In this document: in pieces, positions 5,106 through 28,799 of the stretch
Layout of the letters: each line of letters begins with the position of its first letter
Numbering within the stretch: the first letter of the stretch is position 1
The notes under the pieces: model-generated
Databases searched by the model: none
Told to the model about the DNA's origin: nothing
Seen by the model: only the letters and a program-made list of their open reading frames with translations
DNA from: an uncultured Bacteroidales bacterium
Lineage (GTDB): Bacteria > Bacteroidota > Bacteroidia > Bacteroidales > FEN-979
DNA: 33,537 bases
Assembly (NCBI GenBank): GCA_903929315.1
Contig: CAIYUC010000162.1
Span: 1-33,537 of the forward strand
Reading direction: 5' to 3'
Made by a program: the position numbers and the translations under genes

Positions 5106-6478
5106 AAAAAATCTTCCTGATCATCCGCCGTGAATATCTTACCCGGGTTAAGAAAAGATCATTCATCATAATGACTATTCTGGGGCCATTACTTATGGCT
5201 GCAGTTTTTATCGTCCCCATTTACCTTGCCACTGTTTCCAATGAATCCAAGACGGTGGCCGTCCTCGATGAAAGCGGTTTTTTCTATGAAAAATTTAAAG
5301 ATTCCGAAAATATCAAATTTCATTATCTTTTGAGTGACCTGAATTCCGCGAAAGAAAGCTTTACAAAAACCGGTGATTATGCCCTTCTCTATATTCCCAA
5401 AACAGCAGTAAGTCTCCCCGAAAATGCAATTATTTATGCCAAAAGCCAGGTCAATATCATGGTGAAAAGTTATATCAAAGATGTTATGTCAAGGCAGATC
5501 GAAGAACTGAAGCTCGAAGCTAAGATCAGGGATATTCAACCAACTACCGGCGGAAATTTAACAACGGACGACATTTTGCGGTCCATCAAAGCCAATGTCG
5601 ATATAACCACTATCAAGATCGGCAGTAATGGGAAAGAAGAAAAGAGTTATCCTGAAGTCAGTATGTTTCTCGGTATTTTCAGCGGCATTTTGATCTATTT
5701 CTTTATCTTTCTGTTCGGTTCCCAGGTGATGAGAGGTGTTATTGAAGAAAAAACCAGCAGGATCATCGAGCTTATCATTTCATCTGTTAAGCCTTTCCAG
5801 CTAATGATGGGCAAGATCATCGGAGTAGGATTGGTAGGACTTACTCAATTCCTTCTCTGGGTCATTCTGACTTTCGGGTTGGTGACCATTGTCACTTCTT
5901 CTTTTTCAACACGGTTGAAACCCAACGCGCCCACAGAACAGTTCATGACCGGACAAAATCAGATCATCCACGCGGATAAACCCGCTTCGCCGCCGAATCC
6001 CGCGAAGGATAATAAAGATAATGTTAATGAAGTATTGGATGCTATCAATACCATCGATTTTCCTGTGATGCTGAGTTCCTTCCTGTTTTTTTTCCTTTTC
6101 GGATACCTGCTTTATGCGGCACTGTTTGCCGCTATCGGATCGGCTGTTGACAGCGAAGCTGACACCCAGCAATTTATGCTACCTATCACAATTCCTCTGA
6201 TCTTCTCATTCGTAATGGCACAATATATCATGCAGGAACCACAAGGTCCGATGGCTATCTGGTTCTCTATGATCCCTCTGACCTCACCGGTCATAATGAT
6301 GGTCCGCATTCCTTTCGGAGTGCCTTATTACCAGGTTATTTTATCCATGGTATTGCTATTGCTTGGATTTTTAGGCACTACCTGGATCGCAGGGAAGATC
6401 TATCGCACTGGTATCCTGATGTATGGTAAGAAGGTGAATTATAAGGAATTGTGGAAGTGGATCAGGTATAAGAACTGA
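5102..6478 (+). CDS. ABC-2 type permease (NatB-like)
   Basis: This 458-residue permease is the partner of the upstream ATPase. It has an N-terminal membrane helix (about residues 20-45), a large external domain (about 45-185), then a cluster of five or so C-terminal helices starting near FLGIFSGILIYFFIFLFGSQ. The VIEEKTSRIIELIISSVKP segment is typical of the NatB/ABC-2 family. A Pro/Asn-rich insert (about residues 275-310) separates two helices. The TGA stop (6476-6478) forms the first bases of a GATACTC heptamer array that fills the whole gap to the convergent TPR gene. Confidence 0.92.
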   Translation: MKKIFLIIRREYLTRVKKRSFIIMTILGPLLMAAVFIVPIYLATVSNESKTVAVLDESGFFYEKFKDSENIKFHYLLSDLNSAKESFTKTGDYALLYIPKTAVSLPENAIIYAKSQVNIMVKSYIKDVMSRQIEELKLEAKIRDIQPTTGGNLTTDDILRSIKANVDITTIKIGSNGKEEKSYPEVSMFLGIFSGILIYFFIFLFGSQVMRGVIEEKTSRIIELIISSVKPFQLMMGKIIGVGLVGLTQFLLWVILTFGLVTIVTSSFSTRLKPNAPTEQFMTGQNQIIHADKPASPPNPAKDNKDNVNEVLDAINTIDFPVMLSSFLFFFLFGYLLYAALFAAIGSAVDSEADTQQFMLPITIPLIFSFVMAQYIMQEPQGPMAIWFSMIPLTSPVIMMVRIPFGVPYYQVILSMVLLLLGFLGTTWIAGKIYRTGILMYGKKVNYKELWKWIRYKN

Positions 6479-6504
6479 TACTCGATACTCGATACTCGAT
6501 GCCC
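6477..6504. repeat. 7-bp tandem array, unit GATACTC (4 units)
   Basis: Three perfect GATACTC units and one GATGCCC unit fill almost the whole 28-nt gap between two convergent genes (permease stop at 6478, TPR gene stop at 6507). The array overlaps the permease TGA. It is the complement of the ATCGAGT unit at 174-215. Confidence 0.9.
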
Positions 6505-9603: not shown

Positions 9604-9653
9604 GATTCTCGATACTCGATTCTCGATACTCGATGCTCGATATAATTACGAAT
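9604..9653. repeat. 7-bp tandem array, GATACTC/GATTCTC/GATGCTC plus ATTACGA-like tail
   Basis: Five units (GATTCTC, GATACTC, GATTCTC, GATACTC, GATGCTC) at 9604-9638 are followed by two diverged units up to 9653. Read leftward the array begins at the base directly after the TAA stop of the arginine decarboxylase gene and stays in 7-bp register. It lies between arginine decarboxylase and the DHS-family gene. Confidence 0.85.
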
Positions 9654-11045: not shown

Positions 11046-11123
11046 GATCTTAAATATTAAATGTATATCACCTGGATTACCAAAATATGTCTAATGTAAT
11101 TAACCCGGATTCAAGTAAAATTG

Positions 11124-11131
11124 CAAAAGTA
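11124..11131 (-). promoter_or_regulatory. putative -7 promoter box for arginine decarboxylase
   Basis: Read leftward, TACTTTTG matches TAnnTTTG. A TTTA lies 18 nt further upstream as a 3/4 match to the -33 TTTG box. The leader to the ATG at 11045 would be about 70 nt. Confidence 0.4.
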
Positions 11132-11273
11132 AGCTAATATTATCTAAAATAAAATTGGACTATATCTTTTTTAAGGTGTAAGACTTGAAGGACTGAGAGA
11201 ACAAAGATATTTACGATTGGACGATCTTAGAGGTACGGTTAAATTGTACGAGTGACGATCGATGATTAAATTA

Positions 11274-19311: not shown

Positions 19312-20409
19312 ATGAATGAACGTCTGTTACTCCTGATTCTGTGGTTTGCCTGGTTTCATTGTTTTGGGCAAACCCCGACAAAAAGACAGAATACCGGTAT
19401 CACCGAAAACTATGCCAATATTAAATGGCAAAGTAATAAAGGTCATAATGTCAGGATCATTTTTTATAATGTTGAGAATCTTTATGATCCTTACAATGAC
19501 ACAACAAAAATGGATGATGAATTTACTTCCATGGGGACAAGGAGATGGACCTATGCAAAATTCCTTGAAAAGATCTTTCATCTTTCCAGGGTTTTCTTGT
19601 CCATAGGAGAATGGGATCCACCGGCCATTGTAGGGATGTGCGAAATTGAGAACCTTTATGTTCTCAGGAAGCTCATCTATGATACCCCATTGAAATGTGT
19701 CAAATACAGGATCATTCACTATGATTCTCCGGATATCCGGGGAGTTGATGTAGCCTTGATTTACAGACCTGAGAAGTTCAATGTACTTTATTCAAAAAGT
19801 TTTAAAGTGATTTTTCCGTTTGATAGTCTTTCCCATACAAGGGATATTCTGTATGTCAAAGGAACAGTCTTTAAAAGTGATACGGTTCATCTCTTCATCA
19901 ACCACTGGCCTTCACGTCGCGGGGGATATAAGGAATCCACACCGAAAAGGAATTTTGTTGCCATGCTTTTAAAAAGTAAAGTTGATTCTCTTTTATCCGG
20001 GAATCATCATTCAAATATTATCATTATGGGGGATTTCAATGATGAACCGGGAAATGAAAGCCTGTGCAAAATCCTGAAGGCCAAACCTGACTCCCAACAT
20101 TTTCAACTTACTGACCTTATTAATCTCATGGCAGTGAAAACCAGCGATTGGAATCAGGGTACAATAAAGTACCAGGGGAAATGGTCCATCTTTGACCAGT
20201 TCATTGTTTCGGGGTCGCTCTTCAGGGAAGAGAACGGAATTCATACTTCCCTGGAAGATGCACATATATTCACAGCAGATTTTTTGTTAAACGATGACGC
20301 CCGTTTCCTCGGATCCAAGCCAAACCGGACCTACGTTGGTCCAAGATATAATGGGGGCTTTTCTGATCACTTGCCGATTTACCTGGATCTATGGAAACTT
20401 GATAATTGA
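19312..20409 (+). CDS. exported endonuclease/exonuclease/phosphatase family protein
   Basis: A metal-dependent phosphoesterase of the DNase I-like EEP superfamily, 365 residues, with a signal peptide (about residues 4-20, LLLLILWFAWFHCFGQ). The catalytic motifs are complete: FYNVENLYD (Asn53), MCEIEN (metal-binding Glu111 or Glu113), NHWPSRRGG (His198), MGDFNDEP (Asp241, Asn243) and SDHLPIY near the C-terminus. Its substrate could be nucleic acid, a phospholipid or a sugar phosphate. Export points to extracellular nucleic acid or phosphate scavenging. The TGA stop overlaps the first unit of a GATTACG array. Confidence 0.9.
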   Translation: MNERLLLLILWFAWFHCFGQTPTKRQNTGITENYANIKWQSNKGHNVRIIFYNVENLYDPYNDTTKMDDEFTSMGTRRWTYAKFLEKIFHLSRVFLSIGEWDPPAIVGMCEIENLYVLRKLIYDTPLKCVKYRIIHYDSPDIRGVDVALIYRPEKFNVLYSKSFKVIFPFDSLSHTRDILYVKGTVFKSDTVHLFINHWPSRRGGYKESTPKRNFVAMLLKSKVDSLLSGNHHSNIIIMGDFNDEPGNESLCKILKAKPDSQHFQLTDLINLMAVKTSDWNQGTIKYQGKWSIFDQFIVSGSLFREENGIHTSLEDAHIFTADFLLNDDARFLGSKPNRTYVGPRYNGGFSDHLPIYLDLWKLDN

Positions 20410-20428
20410 TTACGGATTACGGATTACG
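20408..20428. repeat. 7-bp tandem array, unit GATTACG (3 units)
   Basis: Three perfect GATTACG units start two bases into the stop region of the upstream gene (TGA at 20407-20409). The same heptamer in other register (ATTACGA) occurs inside the FISUMP gene at 22963-22990. Confidence 0.85.
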
Positions 20429-20497
20429 GAAAAGTTTGAATTCTTTGGTCTAAAAGAATATTGAATATTAATCAACGAATGTTGAAGTTCGAAAACC

Positions 20498-20563: not shown

Positions 20564-20596
20564 ATCGAGTATCCAGGATCAAGCATCCAGTATCAG
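20564..20596. repeat. 7-bp array, diverged ATCGAGT/ATCCAGT units
   Basis: Units ATCGAGT, ATCCAGG, ATCAAGC, ATCCAGT and ATCAG(TA) follow in 7-bp register. The array lies about 20 nt beyond the stop of the leftward radical SAM gene. Confidence 0.75.
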
Positions 20597-22409: not shown

Positions 22410-25400
22410 TCAATCTTTCAGACATCTCACCGAAAACGCATTCGATTTGAACGCCGGATATACCGACACGCTTGGATCAGCATCGTTCATCCCATGCACC
22501 CAGGCTTTGTTTGTGCCGTGGGCTGTCGATGACCAGAAGAATGTTGCAAACCCCTGGAAATCCCAGGTTTTGTTTAAGTGCCTGGCACCGTATAGAAGAG
22601 CATTGAAGCCTGAAAATCCTGAATATTTCAAGGGACTGGCGGCAAAGGCATTGCTGATGTAATTTGCAAAAAGTGTATTCCAATCTATTTCCGAGGGAAC
22701 ATGCCATCCCGGCGGGCAAAGGCCTTGGTTGGAGAGGGTTTCGTCGTAGTTCATTAGCTCATCCCATTGGTAGACAGATGCTGGATGCTCGATACTCGAT
22801 GCTGGATTGTGATATTTCTCAGGGATACAGTTATCTCTCTGATCCAGGTTTGAAGTTATTTCTGTTCCATAATTCAAATTTTCTACCATCCAACACTGTG
22901 GGCCAATCTGAATTGTGGGATATACCTTGTTATCGCGAATGTCAGTCAGATCTGATCCGCAAATTACGAATGACGGATTACGAATTACGAATGATAGTAT
23001 AGCGCTGGCAGAACAAAGGGCAGAATTGGTATAGGTATAGGTGATCGTTTTTGTGCCAACACCTGCAATTGCAGGATAAAAGATCCCGTTTGTGACTCCC
23101 GGGCCTGAATAAGTTCCGCCAAGTGGAATTCCACCTTTTAATTTGAATGGTTTGGCATTGGTGGTGGTGATTGAATCGTTGCAGAGGGTGAATGTTACTA
23201 CCGACGCTAATGTTCCGCTCATAATGATCTTACCGGAGGATGCAGGATTACCGGAAACACAATTCAGATTTGAGGTCATGATACACCGGACACTATCACC
23301 ATTCAAAGGATTATAAGAATATGTTGTGGAATTCGTTCCAGCGTTAACTCCGTTTACTTTCCATTGATAAGAAGGATTTGCACCACCATTCACCGGAGTT
23401 GAAGTAAATGTGACACTATTCCCCGGACAGAAAGGATTTGTTGATGCAACGATGGAAACACCTGCTGGAACATTGTTATTCTGGATCATGGTGATGGTAT
23501 TTGATGTGGCAGGGTTTCCTGATGGACAAGCGATATTAGAAGTCAGGATACAGGATACCAAGTCACCGGACGCCGGAATGTAAGCGTAAACGGGATTATT
23601 TGAGCCAACAATAATTCCATTTACCTTCCATTGATATGAAGGTGCAGCACCTCCGTTCGTTGGTATTGAAGTGAATGTGACTGATGTTCCCTGGCAGAAA
23701 GGATTTGCAGAAGCTGAAATTGAAACACTCACCGAAAGATTCGGATTGACAATCATTGTAATTGTATTGCTGGTGGCCGGGTTTCCCGTTGGACACTGGA
23801 TATTTGAAGTAAGGATGCAGGATACCAAGTCACCGGATGCCGGAGTATACGAGTAGGTGGTACTATTCGTTCCAACGCTGATCCCGTTAACTTTCCACAG
23901 GTAAACAGGTATCGTGCCACCATTACCGGGTGTTGCGGTAAATGTAACGGTCGCACCTGAACAGACCGGGTTTGCAGAAGGTGAAATGGCAACACTGACA
24001 GGATTCAGCGGATTGACAATCATCTGTATGGTATTAGATGTCGCTGGGTTATTTGAGATGCAAACAGTAATGGAAGATGTTAAGATACAGGAAACCAAAT
24101 CCCCGTTGACCGGATTATCGGTATAGTTTGGACTATTTGTTCCAACACTGATTCCGTTTACCTTCCAAAGGTATGATGGTGTGGTTCCTCCATTTGTAGG
24201 AATTGCCGTGAAAATGACAGGTGTTCCTGCACAAATGTTGTTTATTGAGGAAGAAATACTGACTTTTACTGAATCTCCGGGATTTACCGTTACCGGAAAA
24301 TCAACCTTAGTTCCTGCACAACCCCCCAGTTTGGGTGTTATACTATATGTTACAATTCCAGCAGATGAGCCATTATTTGTGAGAACCTGGTTAATGATAA
24401 GTCCTGAATCGGGCGTAAAACCGGTTATATTTCCCAAGGTTAATGCGACAGTCCAATGAAAATTGGTACCCGGTTCATTGGAGGTTAAGGCAATATTGGT
24501 GGACTCTTCCGAACAGATAGTTTTTGAAAGAGGATTGTTAGTTATGGCAGGTTGCGGATTTGTGATCAGTTGAACCGTATCTCTCCCAGTGCATCCGTAA
24601 TTGTTGGTGACGGCAACCTCATATGTCCCCGCTTGGCTTGTTGTATAGGTCTGGCCGGAACCAACAGGCAGCATAGTGGTCAGATCTGTCCACTGGTATG
24701 TACATCCGGTGCAGGCCCCTGCGTCGAAGGTAAACTGGGTTCCGCTACAAACGGACCGGTCGGGGCCGAGTACCGGTATATAGGTCGGATTAATCGTAAT
24801 CTGCTGCCATGCCGTGTCGGTACGCTTGTCGATATGTCGTACAAACAGCGTTATATTGTATGAACCAGGCACCAAAAAGGTATGCGCAGGATTTTGGATG
24901 TAAGAATAATTTTCCGGACCCGATGCAGGATCTCCGAAATCCCAGTGGATGCTGTCAGGTTGAGGCCATATGGTAGATGTGAAGTTCACGGGTAAACCCT
25001 GGCAATGACCTGTATCATGAATATACACATAATACCGCTCAAGGTGTTGAACAAATCCCTGCAAACATATTCTTCCCTGCAGCCAGACCACATGAGGCCT
25101 AAAATTACACCCCAGTCCCTGGACTGTCGGAAAATTGATAACATCCACCGAATCCTCACCCTCATGTGTACAATAAATTTTATGGTCAGGTCCTCTCTGC
25201 AGTTGAGATGGGTAGATATTAGTCTGATGAATCAAAACTTCACTTTGTATGAACTGTGCAGAATCTGTTTTTGAAGCATCATACTGGTATATTTTCATAC
25301 AGGGGCAATAACCATCCCATCTTGAAATATACAGGAACCTGTTATCGATCGAGAATTCAGCAGTTGAAAACTCTCCATGTGTTGTGTTTAAGGTATTAAA

Positions 25401-26192
25401 GCAAAACATGGGAGTAATTTCCCCTGTTGAAGAATTGAACTGGCAAAATTCACTAAGGCTGTCATAAACGGTGATAAACCTTGTACCATCCGGTGAAAAT
25501 CGCATCATCTCCCCGCCCTGACCACTCGGCAAAATGGGCCAGTGAAGCATGATCAGGCTGTTGCTTATGACCGGATTCATATCGATCCCGGCCAATGTGA
25601 TATGATACGCAAGATACTGGGTGCTATTCTTGAATTTTCTAACCACGACCCAGGCATCCTTGTTATTTTTTGCCCTTGTTCCGGTGAGCATATCCTTTGT
25701 TTGCAACGCTCCTGCCACAGGGATGCCTGTCTGGCCCGGAGGTACATCGCCCAGGCCGCCATTCAATTTCATATCAACAATTGTGTATGTCAACCCTTTG
25801 GGATTCTGATTCAAGAGAGAAGAGTCTACATCCATCAGGAAAAGGAAATAAACACTATCTTCATCCATCTTTTTTACAGCAAACAAGGGTTGCGGAGCGA
25901 ACTGCCAGGAGCCAAGCAGTGAACCGTTAGGCATAACCTGCATATTCCTGTTATATACATAAGGCTCGTCTGCAAAAAACAAAAGGTTCCCTAATGAATC
26001 TGAAACAGAGGCAGCATAGCCTTCTAATGCAAATGTACTGGGAGCATTCGTAAGAGCTACAGGAGATCCTGAATTGAAATCAAGTCCTGCGCGGGCCCCG
26101 AAATACCAGATGTTGTTCTCTCCCTGGGAAAAAGAAAAAAGAGGGAAAAACAGAAAGGTAAAAATTAAAAACCGGGTAAACGTGTTCTTCAT
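22410..26192 (-). CDS. large secreted PKD/Ig-like protein with C-terminal FISUMP domain
   Basis: A 1260-residue cell-surface protein with a signal peptide (about residues 1-23, ending FSFSQG). The N-terminal 390 residues (NIWYFGARAGLDFNSGSP) look like the propeller found in gliding/T9SS-associated Bacteroidota proteins. A PKD domain follows (about 400-467; HWDFGDPASG). Four Ig/PKD-like repeats of about 88 residues span about 640-1005 (YQWKVNGI, SGDLVSCILTSN, GNPATSNTI). A FISUMP domain closes the protein (QCWMVENLNYGT, YQWDELMNY, LCPPGWHVPSEIDW). I start at the ATG at 26192; a GTG at 26195 is adjacent. Two heptamer arrays lie in frame inside it. No classic T9SS tail was seen. It is probably an adhesin or structural protein. 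Confidence 0.9.
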   Translation of the reverse strand: MKNTFTRFLIFTFLFFPLFSFSQGENNIWYFGARAGLDFNSGSPVALTNAPSTFALEGYAASVSDSLGNLLFFADEPYVYNRNMQVMPNGSLLGSWQFAPQPLFAVKKMDEDSVYFLFLMDVDSSLLNQNPKGLTYTIVDMKLNGGLGDVPPGQTGIPVAGALQTKDMLTGTRAKNNKDAWVVVRKFKNSTQYLAYHITLAGIDMNPVISNSLIMLHWPILPSGQGGEMMRFSPDGTRFITVYDSLSEFCQFNSSTGEITPMFCFNTLNTTHGEFSTAEFSIDNRFLYISRWDGYCPCMKIYQYDASKTDSAQFIQSEVLIHQTNIYPSQLQRGPDHKIYCTHEGEDSVDVINFPTVQGLGCNFRPHVVWLQGRICLQGFVQHLERYYVYIHDTGHCQGLPVNFTSTIWPQPDSIHWDFGDPASGPENYSYIQNPAHTFLVPGSYNITLFVRHIDKRTDTAWQQITINPTYIPVLGPDRSVCSGTQFTFDAGACTGCTYQWTDLTTMLPVGSGQTYTTSQAGTYEVAVTNNYGCTGRDTVQLITNPQPAITNNPLSKTICSEESTNIALTSNEPGTNFHWTVALTLGNITGFTPDSGLIINQVLTNNGSSAGIVTYSITPKLGGCAGTKVDFPVTVNPGDSVKVSISSSINNICAGTPVIFTAIPTNGGTTPSYLWKVNGISVGTNSPNYTDNPVNGDLVSCILTSSITVCISNNPATSNTIQMIVNPLNPVSVAISPSANPVCSGATVTFTATPGNGGTIPVYLWKVNGISVGTNSTTYSYTPASGDLVSCILTSNIQCPTGNPATSNTITMIVNPNLSVSVSISASANPFCQGTSVTFTSIPTNGGAAPSYQWKVNGIIVGSNNPVYAYIPASGDLVSCILTSNIACPSGNPATSNTITMIQNNNVPAGVSIVASTNPFCPGNSVTFTSTPVNGGANPSYQWKVNGVNAGTNSTTYSYNPLNGDSVRCIMTSNLNCVSGNPASSGKIIMSGTLASVVTFTLCNDSITTTNAKPFKLKGGIPLGGTYSGPGVTNGIFYPAIAGVGTKTITYTYTNSALCSASAILSFVIRNPSFVICGSDLTDIRDNKVYPTIQIGPQCWMVENLNYGTEITSNLDQRDNCIPEKYHNPASSIEHPASVYQWDELMNYDETLSNQGLCPPGWHVPSEIDWNTLFANYISNAFAASPLKYSGFSGFNALLYGARHLNKTWDFQGFATFFWSSTAHGTNKAWVHGMNDADPSVSVYPAFKSNAFSVRCLKD
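22777..22811. repeat. in-frame GATGCTG/GATACTC heptamer array inside the FISUMP domain
   Basis: Units GATGCTG, GATGCTC, GATACTC, GATGCTG and GATTGTG lie in 7-bp register within the coding sequence. On the coding strand they encode NPASSIEHPAS just before the conserved YQWDEL motif (about residues 1128-1139). The five units total 35 bp. No stop or frameshift results. Confidence 0.85.
22963..22990. repeat. in-frame ATTACGA heptamer array before the FISUMP domain
   Basis: Units ATTACGA, ATGACGG, ATTACGA and ATTACGA encode SFVIRNPSFVI on the coding strand (about residues 1068-1077), at the junction between the last Ig-like region and the FISUMP domain. The same heptamer forms the intergenic array at 20408-20428. 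Confidence 0.85.
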
Positions 26193-26215
26193 CACCCGTG
26201 ATTATTATTACCTAA

Positions 26216-26273: not shown

Positions 26274-26381
26274 AGAAAAGATAATTCATCATTGACCGCG
26301 CACGCGTTCGGAAACGCGCGCGAGCCGAGAAAAGATAATTCAACATTGACCGCGCACGCGTTCGGAAACGCGCGCGAGCCG
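26274..26381. repeat. 54-bp tandem duplication carrying GC-rich palindromic repeat (copies C and D)
   Basis: Two 54-bp units (26274-26327 and 26328-26381) are almost identical. Each holds AGAAAAGATAATTCA and ATTGA followed by the 31-nt palindromic repeat (26296-26326 and 26350-26380; CCGCGCACGCGTTCGG ... CGCGCGAGCC). A third unit begins (AGAAA) and stops. The gap 26193-26568 otherwise holds the octamer array and no supportable gene. Confidence 0.85.
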
Positions 26382-26444
26382 AGAAACGACAGGTTAAACA
26401 TGGTTCAAAAATATCTTAAAATGCCGCTTAGCTTGACGCGCATG

Positions 26445-26491: not shown

Positions 26492-26571
26492 TGCATACCT
26501 GCATCTCTGCATTACTGCATTACTTCATTACTGCATTACTGCATTACTACATCACTACATTCCTGCATTCA
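26492..26571. repeat. 8-bp tandem array, unit TGCATTAC (10 units)
   Basis: Ten octamers in unbroken register: four perfect TGCATTAC units plus variants such as TTCATTAC, TACATCAC, TACATTCC and TGCATTCA. The right-most three bases are the complement of the TGA stop of the leftward membrane-protein gene, so the array starts at that stop codon. Confidence 0.9.
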
Positions 26572-28712: not shown

Positions 28713-28768
28713 CAAAGTCACAAAGTCACAAAGTCACAAAGTCACAAAGTCATAGAGTCACAGAGTTA
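28713..28768. repeat. 8-bp tandem array, unit CAAAGTCA (7 units)
   Basis: Five perfect CAAAGTCA units are followed by TAGAGTCA and CAGAGTTA. On the leftward strand each unit reads TGACTTTG, one base from the promoter box TAnnTTTG. The array ends 15 nt before the start codon of the leftward membrane-protein gene. Confidence 0.92.
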
Positions 28769-28799
28769 CAAAGAAATTAATTTCTGAATCCTGCAGTCT

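What the first reader, a model, noticed from the sequence alone, without database searches (positions are those of the whole stretch)
22777..22811. Heptamer array has entered a coding frame inside the FISUMP domain
The GATACTC/GATGCTG array that is otherwise intergenic lies inside the open frame of the 1260-residue surface protein and encodes NPASSIEHPAS beside the conserved YQWDEL motif. The reading frame survives. This shows that the arrays can insert or expand within genes and change a surface protein, possibly as contingency-type variation.
Basis: seen in the sequence. Interest (0 to 1): 0.62.

Follow-up and report, generated by a model that had tools for sequence, protein, structure and literature searches.

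The report
Genome's repeats rewrite surface-protein loops
In this Bacteroidales genome and its relatives, short 7-letter DNA repeats that litter the spaces between genes have again and again replaced the same exposed loop of a large family of lectin-like surface proteins, each genome using its own repeat words and never breaking the reading frame.

Summary
In detail: a 31-nt GATGCTG/GATACTC array (about 4.4 units) lies in frame inside the FISUMP domain and encodes HNPASSIEHPASV before YQWDEL. (1) The array is not an insertion. It replaces the usual 14-15-residue C-x7-C...GGL loop with 13 residues, and at least 20 FISUMP paralogues of this genome share it. (2) It is not contingency-type variation: 138 of 138 loops keep frame, and array length is constant within each loop family, while intergenic arrays run 3-22 units. 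(3) It is one case of a wider pattern. In related MAGs the same loop carries other, unrelated heptamers (CTCGTCC, GGCAGTT, ATTGTCC, AACTGSG, AGTCCCA, CGTYACS). All 12 loop-type/genome combinations tested use a heptamer also dispersed outside FISUMP domains in that genome (Fisher p = 8e-7, post hoc). Flanks at the jump are 89-95% identical in the closest paralogue pair. A second patch in the window gene (22959-22997) behaves alike. Best explanation: STRR-like dispersed heptamer arrays were copied into tolerant exposed segments of lectin-like surface proteins, filtered for frame and peptide, then spread by duplication. The copying mechanism is inferred. Single in-frame heptamers are known; this recurrent, genome-matched, site-specific replacement seems new.

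The parts
22410..26195 (-). Gene of the 1260/1261-aa surface protein: signal-peptide-like N-terminus, PKD/PKD-like repeats, C-terminal FISUMP domain
   Evidence: ORF, translation, Pfam/NCBIfam
22413..22949 (-). FISUMP (Fib_succ_major) domain; predicted C-type-lectin-like fold
   Evidence: TIGR02145 E=6e-30; AlphaFold2 pLDDT 85.7; best structural neighbours Lcl-CTD and C-type lectins, Z up to 8.1
22773..22811 (-). Site A: loop codons HNPASSIEHPASV written by the GATGCTG/GATACTC (coding-strand CCAGCAT/CGAGTAT) array; replaces the ancestral C-x7-C...GGL loop
   Evidence: model residues 54-59 have pLDDT < 50 between two strands
22959..22997 (-). Site B: linker/strand segment SFVIRNPSFVI written by an AATTACG/AATGACG/GATTACG array; a variant unit stands where pure (CGTAATT)n would give TAA
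   Evidence: paralogues carry other heptamers at the same 17-residue segment
174..218 (.). Dispersed array of the same family, outside the FISUMP gene (6.4 units)
6477..6504 (.). Dispersed array of the same family, intergenic
9604..9642 (.). Dispersed array of the same family, intergenic (5.6 units)
20408..20430 (.). Dispersed GATTACG array (family of site B)
20564..20594 (.). Degenerate dispersed array of the site-A family

Best explanation
The window array is a stretch of the genome's own dispersed heptamer repeats that has replaced the coding sequence of an exposed, flexible loop of a lectin-like FISUMP domain. SHOWN: the loop DNA is a heptamer array. The same loop holds different heptamers in other paralogues and genomes. 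The heptamer in the loop is one that the same genome carries elsewhere. Replacement boundaries are sharp. Frame is always kept. Variation inside the loop array follows the unit alphabet of the intergenic arrays rather than the genetic code. INFERRED: a piece of about 30 nt was copied from an intergenic array by recombination or template switching (no RT-based route is needed). Most such events are lost, but here they survive because (a) a 7-nt array reads as one and the same heptapeptide in all three frames of a strand, so a stop-free strand is open in any phase, (b) the loop tolerates almost any peptide provided total length stays a multiple of 3, and (c) the encoded heptad suits the site (often xxPxSx[VIL]). 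Gene duplication then spread the loop: the G000 copies form one clade. The result is lineage-specific rewriting of surface-protein loops, not on/off switching.
For: 57 FISUMP matches in the genome, at least 20 of them with the array at identical codons. Loops lacking the C-x7-C form: mean lag-7 identity 0.71 against 0.30 after codon shuffling; the peak is confined to the loop and absent at lags 5, 6, 8, 9. Genome-specific matches (exact 18-21-mers): GATRCTS G000 162, G003 68, G001 0; CGTCCCT only G004 47, G011 47, G100 28; GGCAGTT G011 96, G004 41, G100 11; TTGTCMA G101 89, at most 1 elsewhere; AACTGSG G001 28, G011 24, G000 2; CGTYACS G001 40; AGTCCCA G001 3, G004 3. 12 of 12 loop-bearing cells have dispersed copies against 16 of 65 loop-less cells, p=8e-7. 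Tree with loop columns removed: 18 loop/array changes, at least 9 forced by starred branches; G000 GCATCCA loops one 96* clade, G003 ones in another starred clade beside G003's own C-x7-C loops. L155/L224, same genome: flanks 89-95% identical, loop 58%, sharp edges. 138/138 in frame. All 17 departures inside G000 loop arrays fall at heptamer positions 2, 3, 5 with alleles also used by intergenic units; 10 are nonsynonymous. Array density per 100 kb: FISUMP ORFs 14.7, other ORFs 1.9, non-coding 45.1. The loop is the only segment of the model with pLDDT below 50. RT family absent from array-rich G003, G011, G014, G018.
Against: The act of copying is not observed and no machinery is identified. 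Direction (intergenic to gene) is inferred. Heptamers were chosen after seeing the loops and the genomes are related, so the Fisher p is optimistic. Dispersed arrays are necessary but not sufficient: G014 has 585 GATRCTS matches, yet none of its FISUMP loops examined carries the array. Some loop families (TGNSS..., IRNASF..., hairpin LQPPPGLPQ) are weak or not heptameric, and the CTGTGCC/CTGAGCT type was not checked genome-wide. Inner tree branches are often poorly supported (quick tree, SH-aLRT only), and gene conversion among paralogues can mimic repeated origin. All genomes are MAGs. The census was taken around FISUMP genes.
Confidence: 0.72

Rival explanations
1. Contingency locus: the array expands and contracts by slippage and switches or varies the surface protein.
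For: Period-7 repeats in a surface-protein gene; gain or loss of one unit would frameshift; intergenic arrays of the same family vary from 3 to 22 units.
Against: 138/138 loops are in frame, and array length is constant within each loop family (about 31 nt for GCATCCA, GGCAGTT and CTCGTCC) across paralogues and genomes. Only about 4.4 imperfect units, near the C-terminus of the gene. Tree changes are replacements of type, not length steps.
Confidence: 0.06
2. The genes are the source: loops became 7-periodic in place (slippage, selection for a heptad peptide) and gene-derived units then spread between genes.
For: Loop peptides share a pattern (xxPxSx[VIL]) across heptamers. The PKD-repeat site C has a native NPATSN that already resembles two CCAGCAA units.
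Against: Many unrelated heptamers at one site, all also dispersed. Intergenic arrays are longer and denser (45.1 against 14.7 per 100 kb). The ancestral loop (C-x7-C...GGL) is not 7-periodic. Variation follows the unit alphabet and not codon degeneracy.
Confidence: 0.1
3. Single ancient acquisition followed only by vertical descent and paralogous recombination, with heptamer types changing later by ordinary mutation.
For: G000 GCATCCA loops form one clade. Codon phase is similar across types. Types cluster on the tree (31 changes against 68 shuffled).
Against: Sister paralogues 93% identical differ wholly in the loop. Starred branches force at least 9 loop/array switches. Each new type equals the host genome's own dispersed family, which point mutation would not produce.
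Confidence: 0.1
4. Artefact of metagenome assembly: array-containing reads were joined into FISUMP genes.
For: Several contigs of G000 end inside such arrays (C50, C53, C111, C145).
Against: Frame kept in 138/138 cases. Same site in MAGs from independent projects. Flanking domains are intact and diverged by paralogue.
Confidence: 0.02

Closest known systems
STRR: short tandemly repeated repetitive heptamers of cyanobacteria, and the GGGAATC / GGGGA(C/T)T heptamers of Xanthomonas and Nostoc (PMC4692102)
   Same: 7-nt units, many dispersed mostly intergenic arrays, lineage-specific unit sequence; part of them intragenic (Nostoc 68% intergenic)
   Different: Reported intragenic copies are not described as recurrent replacements of one loop of one protein family by several different heptamers
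TAACTGA heptamer direct repeats of Beggiatoaceae, some Cyanobacteria and Bacteroidetes (PMC4679880)
   Same: Dispersed heptamers; a few in frame inside ORFs, one encoding LSVINYQLS in a surface loop of an RNA polymerase beta-prime homologue; one strand stop-free in all frames
   Different: Mostly just upstream of start codons; in-ORF cases are single and unrelated in sequence; no paralogue family, no matching of several heptamers to their own genomes
Rickettsia palindromic elements (in-frame repeats inside protein genes; recalled from general knowledge)
   Same: Repetitive DNA accommodated in frame within protein genes at tolerant positions
   Different: RPEs are about 100-150-bp palindromic insertions; here 31-nt tandem heptamers replace existing codons
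Diversity-generating retroelements acting on C-type-lectin-like/FISUMP proteins (PMC4159848)
   Same: The same protein domain (Fib_succ_major) is a target of sequence diversification
   Different: DGRs need a reverse transcriptase and mutate adenines in a C-terminal VR; here an N-proximal loop is swapped for heptamers, and array-rich genomes without an RT match exist
Contingency loci with 7-bp repeats (hmw1A of Haemophilus influenzae, PMC8262952)
   Same: 7-bp tandem repeats at a surface-protein gene
   Different: Those repeats vary in number and tune or switch expression; here number is fixed and repeats are coding

Membership tests
FISUMP / Fib_succ_major domain | HMM score above curated cut-off over the full profile | tested here: met
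   TIGR02145 105 bits (cut-off 41.65), profile 2-176/176; PF09603 77.6 bits (cut-off 33.9)
C-type-lectin-like fold | Structural similarity to CLec domains | tested here: inconclusive
   Rows almost all CLec-like, best Z 8.1 (Lcl-CTD), then 7.6 and lower; Foldseek E not below 0.001; HHsearch link of Fib_succ_major and DUF1566 in PMC4159848
STRR-type dispersed heptamer repeats | Perfect or near-perfect 7-nt tandem units at many loci of one genome | tested here: met
   162 three-unit matches in G000, 0 for the reversed control
STRR-type dispersed heptamer repeats | Preferentially intergenic | tested here: met
   45.1 arrays per 100 kb in non-coding DNA against 1.9 in other ORFs; FISUMP ORFs are the exception with 14.7
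Contingency (phase-variable SSR) locus | Repeat number differs between copies or clones | tested here: not met
   Length constant within each loop family across paralogues and genomes; reads of one population not available
Contingency (phase-variable SSR) locus | Out-of-frame (OFF) alleles exist | tested here: not met
   0 of 138 loops out of frame in a frame-blind DNA scan
Diversity-generating retroelement target | Cognate reverse transcriptase in the genome | tested here: not met
   No PF00078 match in array-rich G003, G011, G014, G018; three partial matches in G000
Diversity-generating retroelement target | TR/VR pair with adenine-specific substitutions | not tested
   No TR/VR search was run
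Rickettsia palindromic element-like insertion | Inserted sequence that adds residues | tested here: not met
   Loop is 2 residues shorter than the usual form; the unit is tandem

The most novel reading that the evidence does not exclude
Dispersed heptamer arrays act as a donor library for an ongoing, RT-independent diversification of surface-protein loops: array segments are copied into a few fixed acceptor sites (FISUMP loop, pre-FISUMP strand, PKD-repeat junction, N-terminal linker) of a large lectin-like paralogue family, and the 7-nt period is kept because it is readable in every frame.
Probability: 0.15. Interest if true: 0.88.

Novelty: new variant of a known kind. Interest (0 to 1): 0.64.

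Why it matters
Short tandem repeats in bacteria are usually treated as intergenic clutter or as frame-shifting switches. Here they appear as recurrent raw material for protein sequence: at one loop of one domain family, seven heptamers tested genome-wide match dispersed repeats of the host genome. That gives a natural experiment on how non-coding repeats become coding without breaking frame (7 is coprime to 3, so each strand has one heptapeptide), and a way to ask how heptamer arrays move at all, which is unexplained in cyanobacteria, Xanthomonas, Beggiatoaceae and Bacteroidetes alike.

Tried and rejected
Codon bias or protein-level convergence as the cause of the periodicity: rejected, codon shuffling gives lag-7 0.30 against 0.71. 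Contingency length variants: none in 138 loops. RT/DGR route: RT absent from several array-rich genomes. A specific donor: the window loop's 33 nt occur verbatim between two ORFs at G000:C2 about 11,102-11,134, and L110's 24-mer at G001:C63 in apparently non-coding DNA. Simulation gives a 49% chance of a 31-nt identity with this unit alphabet and 1.5% for 33 nt, so this is only suggestive. Flanking homology between intergenic arrays and the loop: none seen. No solved sequence relative in the PDB. C-x7-C changing to H-x7-H in the GCATCCA loops looks neat but holds only for this type and is probably coincidence.

Full report
What is there. The window is a whole 33.5-kb contig (G000:C162) of a 4.31-Mb, 244-contig genome whose nearest relatives are Bacteroidales MAGs from lakes and other environments. 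The gene at 22410-26195 (minus) encodes PKD and PKD-like repeats and a C-terminal FISUMP domain. At 22773-22811 its codons are a GATGCTG/GATACTC array and spell HNPASSIEHPASV between EKY and YQWDEL. Lag 7 is essentially the only lag between 4 and 13 with strong periodic patches in this ORF, and it has two of them: this loop and 22959-22997, an AATTACG-type array encoding SFVIRNPSFVI just before the domain.

It is a shared replacement, not a private insertion. The genome has 57 FISUMP matches. At least 20 carry the same array at the same codons, always 13 residues; the others mostly have CYND..NC..GGL, 14-15 residues. In five further paralogues the same stretch is a different heptamer, ACTGCGA/ACTGCTG (L008, L009, L014, L015, L017). 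Against the usual form the window loop is two residues shorter. The arrays are not 'otherwise intergenic'.

The same loop in relatives holds other heptamers. Reading 161 distinct domains: CTCGTCC (SRPSSLVPRPSY; G004, G011, JADHVQ), GGCAGTT (KLAVGSWQLAV; G004, G011), ATTGTCC (NCPLSIVNCPLSL; SACF, JAQWBQ), AGTCCCA (SGPMSQVPSPAF; G001), CGTTACG/CGTCACC (SRYASPVTRYDF; G001), AACTGGG/AACTGCG (..ITANCELGTAN; G001), CTGTGCC/CTGAGCT (G004, G011), and single cases. Loops without C-x7-C have mean lag-7 identity 0.71 (0.30 with codons shuffled). In positional profiles the signal sits only at the loop and only at lag 7. Site B behaves alike: a 17-residue segment written with GATCACC, CGTAATT, CGTAACG, CATTGGT, ATTATCA, AATTTTC, CCATCCT or AGTTGGC units in different genes. 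One search shows two more recurrent coding sites, between PKD-like repeats (NPASSIQYPVS) and in an N-terminal segment before HRIDF.

The heptamer in a loop is one that its genome carries elsewhere. Whole-genome exact counts are sharply lineage-specific: ATTGTCM 89 in G101 and at most 1 elsewhere; CGTCCCT 47, 47 and 28 in G004, G011 and G100 and 0 elsewhere; GGCAGTT 41, 96 and 11 in the same three; GATRCTS 162 in G000 and 68 in G003 but 0 in the same-genus G001, whose loops use other heptamers. Over 7 heptamers x 11 genomes, all 12 loop-bearing cells have dispersed non-FISUMP copies against 16 of 65 others (p=8e-7; post hoc, related genomes). For G001, 20 of 28 AACTGSG and 22 of 40 CGTYACS matches lie outside FISUMP domains.

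History. On a tree of 148 domains without the loop columns, switching between the C-x7-C loop and arrays needs 18 changes, at least 9 forced by starred branches. The G000 GCATCCA loops form one clade (96*), so one acquisition was multiplied by duplication. The G003 ones lie in a different starred clade beside G003's own C-x7-C loops, so the same heptamer probably entered twice. L155 and L224, same genome, have 89-95% identical flanks but loops at 58% with sharp edges. Inside the G000 loops all 17 departures from the perfect repeat are substitutions seen in intergenic units (positions 2, 3, 5), 10 of them amino-acid-changing. The DNA alphabet, not the codon table, sets the variation.

Why it survives. 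For a period of 7 each strand encodes one heptapeptide whatever the frame, so a stop-free strand is always open. At site B, where pure CGTAATT would give TAA, the window gene has a variant unit (with the sequence). All 138 loops found by a frame-blind DNA scan have lengths divisible by three, and within a family the array size is constant, unlike intergenic arrays (3-22 units). In the AlphaFold2 model the array-encoded residues 54-59 are the only stretch below pLDDT 50, between two strands of a domain whose neighbours are Lcl-CTD and C-type lectins. Array density is 14.7 per 100 kb in FISUMP ORFs, 1.9 in other ORFs, 45.1 in non-coding DNA.

Mechanism. Best supported: copying of about 30 nt from dispersed arrays into tolerant exposed segments, with selection for frame, length and peptide, then duplication. 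The copying step is inferred. A verbatim 33-nt copy of the window loop lies in non-coding DNA at G000:C2 between two ORFs, but the unit alphabet makes chance identity of its 31-nt core about even (33 nt: 1.5%). RT-based copying is not required, since array-rich genomes without RT matches exist.

Known and new. Dispersed heptamers are known (cyanobacterial STRRs; Xanthomonas/Nostoc, PMC4692102; TAACTGA repeats, PMC4679880), and the last paper reports one in-frame set in a surface loop of an RNA polymerase beta-prime homologue. FISUMP proteins are DGR targets (PMC4159848). I found no report of recurrent, genome-matched replacement of one loop family by many heptamers. Nine literature searches in an open-access library cannot exclude one.

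Noticed in passing
L105, L108, L143 (site A, LQPPPGLPQQGEGGA-type loops): The same FISUMP loop is filled in three genomes by a GC-rich inverted repeat (CCTCCCCCAACAGGGGGAGG-like) instead of a heptamer, so other small repeats also enter this site.
   Followed up: partly
L230 8242-17446, L227 10777, L241 10730, L246 7384: GCATCCA arrays (NPASSIQYPVS) sit at the junction of PKD-like repeats, in L230 spaced 267 bp apart, i.e. copied with the 89-aa module; the native NPATSN there already resembles two CCAGCAA units.
   Followed up: partly
L252 6985-7137, L246 4413-4537, L226 3943-4096, L218 13027-13144: N-terminal segment of GGFSYDLY...HRIDF proteins is a patchwork of several different heptamer arrays read in frame.
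   Followed up: no
L080 1-3401 (G000:C143:5900-9300): Intergenic islands made of several different heptamer families side by side (GATGCTG up to 22 units, GAATTTT, GAGTATC, GACTGCT, GAACTGC) flank several genes in this stretch.
   Followed up: partly
window 26499-26569 and 28713-28773: Octamer arrays (CTGCATTA x 8.9; CAAAGTCA x 7.6) in intergenic DNA: period 8 also occurs here.
   Followed up: no
window 26274-26386: Two copies of a 54-bp unit containing a GCGCACGCGTTCGGAAACGCGCGCGAGC palindrome; a related GTGCGCGTTTGTAACGCGTGCG motif at about 20505.
   Followed up: no
G000 C50, C53, C111, C145, C199, C219 ends: Many contigs of the assembly end inside FISUMP genes or heptamer arrays, so paralogue number and array lengths are underestimates.
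   Followed up: no
G000:C143:36410-36975: A FISUMP domain split into two adjacent fragments (profile 7-73 and 76-176), possibly a broken copy; the break is past the loop.
   Followed up: no
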